This document shows, piece by piece, positions 13,227 through 14,862 of a DNA stretch of 64,000 bases. This stretch comes from Alphaproteobacteria bacterium (GTDB lineage Bacteria; Pseudomonadota; Alphaproteobacteria; Rhizobiales; Aestuariivirgaceae). The notes below the pieces were generated by a model that was not told the origin of the DNA, did not search any database, and saw nothing but the letters and a program-made list of their open reading frames with translations. The DNA is taken from assembly GCA_024640405.1 (NCBI GenBank), contig JAHEFB010000002.1, forward strand, positions 62,001 to 126,000, in the 5' to 3' direction. The translations under genes were made by a program, and so were the position numbers. Every line of letters starts with the position of its first letter. The first letter of the stretch is position 1.

Positions 13227-13314
13227 GTATCGTTTTCGTGGAAACTGCCTCTACCGGGACAAGCAAATTTTGCAATGTGACGAATTGCACATCCGGATGC
13301 TCGATTTACGCCTA

Positions 13315-13565
13315 GTTTGGCCATCAACAACAAGGCGTTGAACGACAACAAGAAGACGAAGCAAAGGTAGTCCCCCGATCCCCTGCAAACGTATCCGGGC
13401 CATCTGATGCAACAAAAAATCAAACACGCCGGTCTGAAGAATGGGCAATAATGTTCGCCGGTTTACCCCTCCCGGCCTCAACATTCAAATGCCCCACTAG
13501 TTTACCGCGCTCCCTCGCAAACGGTCCCCCTGCCGTCACTGCTGTCAGGGGGCGCGGCTTTCTTA
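13315..13565 (+). ncRNA. Putative sRNA copy A (C-rich-loop sRNA)
   Basis: About 250 bp intergenic block homologous to 14612-14862; hairpin GCCGG(13457)-TTTACCCCTC-CCGGC(13476); ACCG-CGCTCCCTCGCAAA-CGGT; terminator hairpin CCCCCTG...CAGGGGG (13526-13552) then CGCGGCTTTCTT. Confidence 0.6.
13526..13565 (+). terminator. Rho-independent-type terminator of putative sRNA A
   Basis: CCCCCTG / CAGGGGG stem followed by CGCGGCTTTCTT. Confidence 0.6.
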
Positions 13566-13638
13566 TGCATGGTTTCGAATCAGTCCGGCACTTGTCTCGA
13601 GCATCTGATTCTGTTTGCGAGATCATGATCCGGCAGCC

Positions 13639-14394
13639 TCATGACCCTGGATGCAGGGCAAGCAAATCTTCCACTGCAGTGCTGAAATCATCCGGCGTGA
13701 TCACTGGACTGGGGAACCACAACCGCGCCAGGTCGTTGGCAGCGCTCAGATCGATACCTTCAGGGTCAATTGAGCTGACCCGCCAGCGGCCTTGCTTTGC
13801 TCCCGCCGCGCTGGCCAGCCGGGCCGCCTGACCTCTTTCATTCAGCGAAGCCAACAAGGCAGGCGCATTGACCAGCAGCGCCTCAGCCGGCTCCAGATTG
13901 GTCAGAAGGTCTTCAGGTGTTACCGCATTGGCATTCTGAGCTGGACCGCCATTGAGTTGAACTGATTCGGTGATGATCCGATACATTTGTGCATCAGGCA
14001 GACCGAGGTAGAGCTTCGCCTTGGGAAAGCGCTCAATGTACCGCGCTTTCAGCGCCGAGGCTCCGTCAGGCGTCACCGGTTCCGCGAGACCGCTGAGTGT
14101 CAGGCGCGGGGTGGTCATCACGTCGGTCCGGCTATCGGCCACAGTGATCGAGACGCGAGGATCCATGCCGATATTGCGGGCATGTACCGCAAGTCCGGAC
14201 ATGAAAAGGACCGGCACTCCGTCTGGTTCCACGATCAGGTTTGTCACCGTGCTGTAAGGGTATCCGCCCGGGTCGAGAGTTGCGAGTGCCGCGAGCCGGT
14301 TTGTGCGCAACAGTGTACGCGCGACGCGGATTGCATCTATCGGGCGTCCTGCATCCAGCTTTATCTCAAGGCCTCTGGGAGTGATCGCAGGCAT
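13639..14394 (-). CDS. HugZ-family heme/FMN-binding split-barrel protein (PPOX-like)
   Basis: ORF 251 aa; LLRTNRLAALATLDPGGYPYSTVTNLIVEPDGVPVLFMSGLAVHARNI; DUF2470-like C-terminal half. Confidence 0.8.
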   Translation of the reverse strand: MPAITPRGLEIKLDAGRPIDAIRVARTLLRTNRLAALATLDPGGYPYSTVTNLIVEPDGVPVLFMSGLAVHARNIGMDPRVSITVADSRTDVMTTPRLTLSGLAEPVTPDGASALKARYIERFPKAKLYLGLPDAQMYRIITESVQLNGGPAQNANAVTPEDLLTNLEPAEALLVNAPALLASLNERGQAARLASAAGAKQGRWRVSSIDPEGIDLSAANDLARLWFPSPVITPDDFSTAVEDLLALHPGS

Positions 14395-14611
14395 GTTGGT
14401 TCCTTTTTGCGGGACAAATGGCCATCCTGGTTTCTCATGCAGTGTTCATCATACCGAACCTGTGTGAGGTCTGAAGAATTTCGCTTTGGCTGTCAAATTT
14501 TGCGCCCAACGGAGATGCAGGGGCATGCATGGCCAAAACGCCGGTCACAGCTGCCAGAGTATCGATTTTATCGCAATGTGAGGAAATGCACATTCACACG
14601 GTCGATCAGCC

Positions 14612-14862
14612 TCTAGTTTGGTCATCAACAACAAGGCGTTGAACAACAAGAACACGAAGCAAAGGTAGCCCCCCGATCCCCTGCAAACGTATCCGGGCAC
14701 ACTGAAGCGACAACAACCAAGTCAAAACGCTGACCTGAATAATGGGCGCCATGACTGCCGGTTTACCCCTCCCGGCCTCGACAAAAGAGCCCATTTACAT
14801 GCCGCGCTCCCTCGCAAACGGTCCCCCTGCCGTTACCGCGCCCGGGCGCGGTTTCTTTTTTC
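14612..14862 (+). ncRNA. Putative sRNA copy B, paralogue of copy A
   Basis: Homologous to 13315-13565: shared ATCAACAACAAGGCGTTGAAC, CGAAGCAAAGGTAG, CCCCCGATCCCCTGCAAACGTATCCGGGC, GCCGGTTTACCCCTCCCGGCCTC, CCGCGCTCCCTCGCAAACGGTCCCCCTGCCGT; ends in CCGCGCCCGGGCGCGG+TTTCTTTTTT. Confidence 0.65.
14836..14861 (+). terminator. Rho-independent terminator of putative sRNA B
   Basis: Perfect 16-bp palindrome CCGCGCCCGGGCGCGG followed by TTTCTTTTTT. Confidence 0.85.

What the first reader, a model, noticed from the sequence alone, without database searches (positions are those of the whole stretch)
13272..14862. Duplicated ~290-bp element flanking hugZ: candidate pair of paralogous C-rich-loop sRNAs
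Seen directly: 13272-13565 and 14572-14862 are homologous direct copies on the + strand in the intergenic regions on either side of the HugZ-family gene. Conserved blocks include ATCAACAACAAGGCGTTGAAC, CCCCCGATCCCCTGCAAACGTATCCGGGC, GCCGGTTTACCCCTCCCGGCCTC and CCGCGCTCCCTCGCAAACGGTCCCCCTGCCGT. Each ends in a terminator-like hairpin, but the terminator stems differ (CCCCCTG/CAGGGGG vs CCGCGCCC/GGGCGCGG), so structure is kept where sequence is not. Hairpin loops carry CCCCTC and CTCCCTC (anti-Shine-Dalgarno-like), and one stem differs by a pairing-compatible change (ACCG/CGGT vs GCCG/CGGT). Established knowledge: alphaproteobacterial sRNAs with C-rich loops (e.g. alpha-r14/'cuckoo' RNAs) occur in multiple copies. 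Inference: these are trans-acting sRNAs, possibly a family not matching the canonical CCUCCUCCC motif.
Basis: partly seen in the sequence, partly recalled or inferred. Interest (0 to 1): 0.85.

Follow-up and report, generated by a model that had tools for sequence, protein, structure and literature searches.

The report
CRP-driven family of C-rich small RNAs
The two repeats beside hugZ are sister genes for non-coding regulatory RNAs, members of a previously uncatalogued family (at least seven copies in this marine bacterium) that appears to be switched on together, along with tiny proteins, by one CRP-type regulator, and whose C-rich loops probably block ribosome-binding sites on mRNAs.

Summary
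Observation confirmed: 13272-13565 and 14573-14862 are direct paralogous copies flanking hugZ. They are more than a pair. The genome (Anderseniella clade) holds seven homologous copies, every Anderseniella genome searched holds two to seven, and the ABC-F / copy / hugZ / copy / trhO order is conserved among Anderseniella species. Each is a stand-alone unit with promoter, C-rich-loop hairpins and terminator. No frame is consistently coding, no Rfam family matches, and no phage or plasmid carries it.

New here: the first 22 bases of each copy, GCAATGTGAnnnAnTGCACATC, are a CRP-type operator centred at about -41.5 (class II position), with a fixed -10 element in 52 of 81 non-redundant sites. The same operator precedes at least three C-rich sRNA types, ~51-aa basic proteins and small secreted peptides. 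A CRP/FNR regulator (helix QREVVTREL) is present in family genomes that have the regulon and absent from eight tested relatives that lack it. Its own gene carries the operator in all six Anderseniella genomes.

Most likely mechanism: CRP-activated, Hfq-assisted anti-Shine-Dalgarno sRNAs, analogous to VtlR-AbcR-DUF1127 and NfeR1/cuckoo RNAs but a separate family under a different kind of regulator. Transcription, CRP binding and targets are inferred, not shown.

The parts
13272..13293 (+). CRP-type operator of copy 1, GCAATGTGACGAATTGCACATC, centre about -41.5
   Evidence: 0 mismatches to the genome-wide pattern; window chance expectation 0.09; 22 sites at <=3 mismatches in the genome, 0 for the reversed control pattern
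13313..13318 (+). -10 element TAGTTT of copy 1; start of transcription inferred near 13325
   Evidence: YAnnnT at this exact offset in 52 of 81 non-redundant sites, against about 0-8 at other offsets; A and T peaks of 1.22 and 0.96 bits
13325..13563 (+). sRNA copy 1 (W1), about 240 nt (ends inferred)
   Evidence: family alignment of 15 copies and conserved structure
13377..13396 (+). near-invariant segment GAUCCCCUGCAAACGUAUCC of copy 1, putative seed
   Evidence: CCCCUGCA in 29 of 80 operator-driven transcripts against 1.1 expected; alignments
13443..13494 (+). middle hairpin of copy 1, apical loop UUUACCCCUC at 13462-13471
   Evidence: loop invariant in 15 copies; stem shows 3 pairs with both-sided changes, covariation score reached by 1 of 500 shuffles
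13505..13565 (+). terminator hairpin CCGCGCUCCCU/AGGGGGCGCGG plus U-rich tail, copy 1
   Evidence: fold and family consensus
14573..14594 (+). CRP-type operator of copy 2, GCAATGTGAGGAAATGCACATT
   Evidence: 1 mismatch
14614..14619 (+). -10 element TAGTTT of copy 2; start of transcription inferred near 14626
14626..14858 (+). sRNA copy 2 (W2), about 235 nt (ends inferred)
14675..14694 (+). near-invariant segment GAUCCCCUGCAAACGUAUCC of copy 2, putative seed
14741..14795 (+). middle hairpin of copy 2, apical loop UUUACCCCUC at 14762-14771
14802..14860 (+). terminator hairpin and U tract, copy 2 (local alternative stem 14835-14852)
13639..14394 (-). hugZ-type gene (PNPOx_N / CREG_beta-barrel), convergent with copy 1 and not overlapped
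   Evidence: Pfam; synteny conserved in Anderseniella

Best explanation
13272-13565 and 14573-14862 are two paralogous genes for about 235-nt non-coding RNAs of a multi-copy Anderseniella sRNA family. A CRP/FNR-family activator (here called CrpB, gene at G000:C61:31729-32430) binds the TGTGA-N6-GCACA operator centred at about -41.5 and recruits RNA polymerase, so that all copies, other C-rich sRNAs and a set of tiny proteins are made together when CrpB is active (cAMP or a similar ligand). The RNA has a CAA/ARN-rich 5' segment likely to hold Hfq, an exposed UCCCCUGCAAAC segment inside a long-range stem, and hairpins presenting CCCCUC-type loops; these pair with Shine-Dalgarno regions of many mRNAs and repress translation. 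Shown here (computationally): family, operator, fixed -10, structure, terminators, regulator co-occurrence and operator in front of the regulator gene. Inferred: transcription, CrpB binding, ligand, Hfq use, anti-SD action, targets.
For: Seven homologous copies in this genome and 2-7 in each other Anderseniella genome searched, none with strong support outside the genus. Synteny ABC-F / copy / hugZ / copy / trhO kept in other Anderseniella. Both copies are followed by convergent genes, so they are not leaders of a downstream gene. Operator: 22 sites at <=3 mismatches against 0 for the reversed pattern, -10 at fixed spacing, palindrome centre 12.5 against an inferred +1 at 54, i.e. about -41.5. 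Middle-stem covariation. Long-range stem GGUGAUG/CAUCACC versus GGCGAUG/CAUCGCC in the shorter branch and GGCGU/ACGCC in the window branch. CCCCUGCA in 29 of 80 transcripts against 1.1 expected. CrpB clade in all 10 tested family genomes that carry the operator (g1, g2, g4, g10) and not in the 8 tested genomes of g3 and g5-g9. Operator in front of crpB in all six Anderseniella genomes, divergent in g2, near it in g10. CRP-like helix QREVVTR and pocket GEMAAIDGLPRSANVT. Hfq present. No Rfam match.
Against: No expression data. Whole-transcript fold is not exceptional for the window copies (z -1.4 and -0.7), although paralogues reach -4.3 and -5.6. RNAalifold on the automatic alignment found no compensatory pairs in the window branch. 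The second half-site GCACA departs from canonical TCACA. crpB relatives occur in other families of the order where the operator was not seen at the gene in most cases, so co-occurrence holds at family level only. g10 has only one operator site at 2 mismatches and g4 none in front of crpB.
Confidence: 0.72

Rival explanations
1. The RNAs are transcribed under CrpB but act mainly as sponges or decoys (for other sRNAs, Hfq or an RNA-binding small protein) rather than by pairing to Shine-Dalgarno regions.
For: Many near-redundant copies under one regulator and co-regulated ~51-aa basic small proteins; in Rhodobacter a DUF1127 protein, CcaF1, binds and processes co-transcribed CcsR sRNAs (PMC10253847).
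Against: Invariant CCCCUC loops and UCCCCUGCA segments fit mRNA pairing; known relatives in mode of action (NfeR1, AbcR) repress ABC-transporter mRNAs (PMC10746234, PMC8844928).
Confidence: 0.15
2. The copies are decayed or small coding genes or leader-peptide genes (for example INNKALNNKKTKQR...).
For: The first 14 or so codons in one frame are nearly invariant, and shorter paralogues have ATG at the corresponding place.
Against: Downstream frames shift by indels between copies; the candidate start varies ATG/TTG/ATA/AAA among paralogues; downstream genes are convergent.
Confidence: 0.05
3. An interspersed or mobile repeat rather than genes.
For: Several dispersed copies per genome; some relatives' contigs end in the element.
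Against: Fixed synteny across species, conserved promoter-to-terminator unit, diverged paralogues, no match in phages or plasmids.
Confidence: 0.03
4. The operator is read by another regulator, for example a LysR-type VtlR/LsrB homologue, or by the second RExxSR CRP paralogue (C24).
For: VtlR activates AbcR2 and three DUF1127 genes, a similar target set (PMC12595884); the C24 paralogue also has an REAVSR helix.
Against: The published VtlR sites CAATGCAGCCATGCA and GCAT-N3-TG-N3-T do not match; the C24 paralogue gave no close (>=80%) relative in three of the six Anderseniella genomes (best 45%, 34% and 34% in G002, G003 and G004), whereas the C61 type tracks the operator and carries it at its own gene.
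Confidence: 0.12

Closest known systems
alpha-r14 / NfeR1 / cuckoo RNAs
   Same: Several hairpins with C-rich anti-Shine-Dalgarno loops, multiple paralogues, variable stems with constant loops
   Different: W-type lacks CCUCCUCCC (though the C81 paralogue has it); longer (~235 nt); CAA-rich 5' segment, long-range stem, UCCCCUGCAAAC segment; CRP-type operator; no match to any of 4227 Rfam families, while a separate RF00519 (suhB) hit above cut-off exists elsewhere in the genome
VtlR/LsrB regulon with AbcR1/AbcR2, vrsA and DUF1127 genes (Brucella, Agrobacterium, Sinorhizobium)
   Same: One activator drives anti-SD sRNAs plus tiny proteins; vtlR/lsrB neighbours an abcR gene, as crpB neighbours an sRNA in genus g2
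   Different: CRP/FNR-family regulator and class II CRP operator instead of LysR and its site; many more sRNA copies; small proteins not matched by the DUF1127 model
CcaF1-CcsR1-4 (Rhodobacter), CIN1 loci
   Same: Small protein associated with a cluster of homologous sRNAs
   Different: There one RpoH-driven operon processed by RNase E; here separate units sharing an operator
E. coli CRP class II promoters; Sinorhizobium Clr
   Same: 16-bp palindrome at -41.5, RExxxR recognition helix, RSA cyclic-nucleotide pocket
   Different: Second half-site GCACA; regulon made up mostly of sRNAs and small proteins

Membership tests
alpha-r14 / suhB (RF00519) / cuckoo RNA | covariance-model match | tested here: not met
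   No hit at window copies or paralogue loci; own-genome RF00519 hits lie elsewhere
alpha-r14 / suhB (RF00519) / cuckoo RNA | CCUCCUCCC in hairpin loops | tested here: not met
   Window copies have UUUACCCCUC and UCCCCCU loops; the C81 paralogue has CCUCCUCCC
alpha-r14 / suhB (RF00519) / cuckoo RNA | represses mRNAs through anti-SD loops | not testable with these tools
   needs expression and reporter data
AbcR (alpha-r15) under VtlR/LsrB | LysR operator CAATGCAGCCATGCA / GCAT-N3-TG-N3-T upstream | tested here: not met
   Operator is GCAATGTGAnnnAnTGCACATC; published sites from PMC12595884 and PMC8844928
AbcR (alpha-r15) under VtlR/LsrB | location beside lsrB/vtlR | tested here: not met
   Neighbours are ABC-F, hugZ, trhO
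Class II CRP-dependent promoter | TGTGA-N6 palindrome centred at -41.5 with a sigma70 -10 | tested here: met
   start site inferred, not mapped
Class II CRP-dependent promoter | second half-site TCACA | tested here: not met
   GCACA in most of the 81 sites
Class II CRP-dependent promoter | binding by the CRP-family protein | not testable with these tools
   co-occurrence, autoregulatory site and helix only
DUF1127 (co-regulated ~51-aa proteins) | Pfam match to DUF1127 | tested here: not met
   0 Pfam families at E<=10; 43 relatives, the few with informative names from Anderseniella MAGs, called hypothetical
Mobile or phage element | match in phages/plasmids or variable insertion sites | tested here: not met

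The most novel reading that the evidence does not exclude
A CRP/FNR-family regulator devoted mainly to RNA and micro-protein output: one autoregulated activator runs a cell-wide set of redundant anti-Shine-Dalgarno sRNAs (three or more structural types), plus small basic proteins whose mRNA 3' ends in several cases carry the same UCCCCUGCA segment, as a counterpart of the LysR-based VtlR-AbcR-DUF1127 circuit. The regulator and its operator persist between genera while the sRNAs they drive are replaced.
Probability: 0.5. Interest if true: 0.75.

Novelty: new variant of a known kind. Interest (0 to 1): 0.62.

Why it matters
It adds an uncatalogued, multi-copy sRNA family with a defined promoter and a strong candidate regulator to a group (Anderseniella, Parvibaculaceae) with, as far as the searches here showed, no described sRNA biology. 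It suggests that co-control of anti-Shine-Dalgarno sRNAs and tiny proteins by one activator has been built with two unrelated kinds of regulator in Hyphomicrobiales. The operator also gives a simple genome-wide handle for finding new sRNAs in related species, and predicts a single-gene test (delete crpB, watch all copies disappear).

Tried and rejected
Rfam at gathering and relaxed thresholds: only chance hits. Sigma70 consensus scan: missed the proposed promoters, as expected if they are activator-dependent and lack a -35. Single-sequence folding z-scores: weak for the window copies. RNAalifold on the automatic alignment misaligned the middle hairpin; a region-specific alignment resolved it. 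Coding reading: frames not consistent. Small proteins as DUF1127: not supported by Pfam or NCBIfam. CRP paralogue at C24 as regulator: poorer phyletic fit. Viral-contig scan failed for technical reasons. Published cuckoo-RNA definition paper not held.

Full report
OBSERVATION. The two copies are real: ungapped blocks of 80-96% identity, alignment, and BLAST of copy 2 finding copy 1 at E=2e-62. They lie between an ABC-F gene (11286-13226, -), hugZ (13639-14394, -; PNPOx_N) and trhO (14917-15834, -; UPF0176_N and rhodanese). Both are on the + strand and every neighbour is on the - strand, so neither copy is a leader of a downstream gene.

FAMILY. The same genome has further relatives on contigs C20 (four) and C81 (one), found by BLAST, the operator pattern and a sequence model built from 22 copies: seven in all. 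Six Anderseniella-clade genomes have 2-7 hits each with best E of 1e-11 or below (G000 to G005); other genera of the family show only marginal hits at E about 1e-3 to 1e-2 that look like C-rich chance matches. Names come from a pattern scan of GTDB representatives: 15 stretches, mostly Anderseniella MAGs, plus one MAG labelled Ahrensia and one labelled Alphaproteobacteria; NCBI places Anderseniella in Parvibaculaceae, Hyphomicrobiales. The order ABC-F / copy / hugZ / copy / trhO recurs in Anderseniella, with three copies in G002; G003 has one diverged copy between trhO and ABC-F (L124). No phage or plasmid record matches.

PROMOTER. The first 22 bases are the most conserved. The pattern GCAATGTGAnnnAnTGCACATC has 22 sites at <=3 mismatches in the genome, while the reversed control has none; in the window exactly the two copies match against 0.09 expected. 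In 81 non-redundant sites from the loci fetched, TGTGA and CACA are almost invariant, and a -10-like YAnnnT occurs at one exact offset in 52 sites, with information peaks at its second and sixth bases, which in a sigma70 -10 are the two most conserved positions (established knowledge). Taking the sixth base as -7, the palindrome centre is at -41.5, the class II CRP position (inference from spacing; start site not mapped).

WHAT THE OPERATOR DRIVES. Reading downstream of the sites: (a) the window type of sRNA; (b) a shorter type with one strong hairpin, loop CCUCCUCCC in C81 and its orthologues and CCCCUCCC in C20; (c) a third type with four hairpins, nearly all loops C-rich, and terminator AAGGCAGCUU...AAGCUGCCUUUUU; (d) ~51-aa basic proteins ending DxRxMRDIGV, reminiscent by eye of DUF1127 but with no Pfam match and with relatives whose informative names are Anderseniella; (e) small secreted-looking peptides. 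At least one promoter is cut by an IS630-like insertion (C4, L021; by eye). CCCCUGCA occurs in 29 of 80 such transcripts against 1.1 expected, in sRNAs near +40 to +60 and in several small-protein mRNAs near the 3' end; homologous copies are counted in that number, so it shows conservation more than independent recurrence, except for the small-protein mRNAs.

RNA ANATOMY. Alignment of the window type and domain folding of 15 copies: 5' CAA-rich segment; near-invariant GAUCCCCUGCAAACGUAUCCGGGC; middle hairpin with invariant ACCCCUCCCGG loop region; terminator CCGCGCUCC.../...GGAGCGCGG plus U tract, with an apical UUCCCCCU loop. The middle stem shows both-sided changes at three pairs, a covariation score reached by 1 of 500 shuffles, and slid controls well below. 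In the shorter type a long-range stem pairs GGUGAUG with CAUCACC or GGCGAUG with CAUCGCC, and the window type has GGCGU/ACGCC at the equivalent place. The whole-RNA energy of the window copies is ordinary, that of C20 copies is not (z -4.3, -5.6). Frames are not conserved.

REGULATOR. The genome has seven full CRP/FNR-type proteins among 13 HTH_Crp_2 hits. One, at C61 (called CrpB here), has recognition helix TQREVVTREL and pocket GEMAAIDGLPRSANVT, with cNMP_binding and HTH_Crp_2 domains; its closest solved relative by sequence is 7pza. Its clade contains g1 (five genomes in the tree plus G003 by sequence), both g2 genomes, g4 and g10, which are the genera with operator sites (g10 has a single 2-mismatch site); the eight tested genomes of g3 and g5-g9 lack it. 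All six Anderseniella crpB genes have an ATGTG-N8-CACAT-type site just upstream (up to two mismatches in G000 and G003), in g2 the site is divergent from crpB and drives a C-rich sRNA with terminator AAAGACGCGAAG-CCCCUCCCA-CUUCGCGUCUUU, and g10 has a nearby site. More distant CrpB relatives exist in other families of the order (44 of 298 genomes), three of the 14 inspected with TGTGA-N6-GCACA near the gene, so the regulator is older than the sRNA family. A class III adenylate/guanylate cyclase gene lies next to the C20 sRNA cluster, which is suggestive for a cAMP input but no more than that.

MECHANISM. Best reading: CrpB activates all these units together; the RNAs, with Hfq (gene present), use CCCCUC-type loops and the UCCCCUGCA segment to cover Shine-Dalgarno regions. 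The last step rests on analogy with NfeR1 (PMC10746234), AbcR (PMC8844928) and the loop motif described for SmelA075/SmelA099 (PMC3927594). Circuit analogy: VtlR activates AbcR2 and three DUF1127 genes (PMC12595884) and, in Agrobacterium, vrsA (PMC7486931); the site differs and the regulator family differs. CcaF1/CcsR is the nearest small-protein/sRNA pairing (PMC10253847).

VERDICT. Observation confirmed; interpretation right in kind, incomplete in scope. New family of a known kind of RNA, in a regulatory arrangement for which no description was found in the papers searched (these are limited to open-licence papers).

Noticed in passing
G000:C61:31729-32430 (L199, L207): CRP/FNR regulator gene CrpB with an operator-like site just upstream; conserved in Anderseniella, divergent from an sRNA in genus g2 (L202:2468, L203:3647).
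   Followed up: yes
L015, L016, L026, L067, L075, L077-L082, L094, L101: Operator-driven ~51-aa basic proteins (M-T-x-Q-H-H-T... DxRxMRDIGV), seemingly Anderseniella-specific, several with UCCCCUGCA in the 3' region of the mRNA.
   Followed up: partly
L030:1501 and L090:506: Operator followed by a conserved GACCCCGUAGC...GCUACGGGGCC structure shared by G000 and G003; possibly another structured RNA.
   Followed up: no
L018, L061, L072, L097, L100, L089: Third sRNA type with four hairpins, nearly all loops C-rich, and a strong terminator; not related in sequence to the window type.
   Followed up: partly
L021 (G000:C4:44554): Operator and promoter of a small-protein gene interrupted by what looks like an IS630-type transposase gene.
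   Followed up: no
L009:2185-4182: Class III adenylate/guanylate cyclase gene beside the C20 cluster of three sRNA copies.
   Followed up: partly
G000:C86:9611-9692 (L222): A canonical suhB/alpha-r14-type RNA (RF00519, 61 bits) exists separately in the genome.
   Followed up: no
L020, L024, L027, L029, L032, L065, L073: Small secreted-looking peptides of unknown function under the same operator.
   Followed up: no
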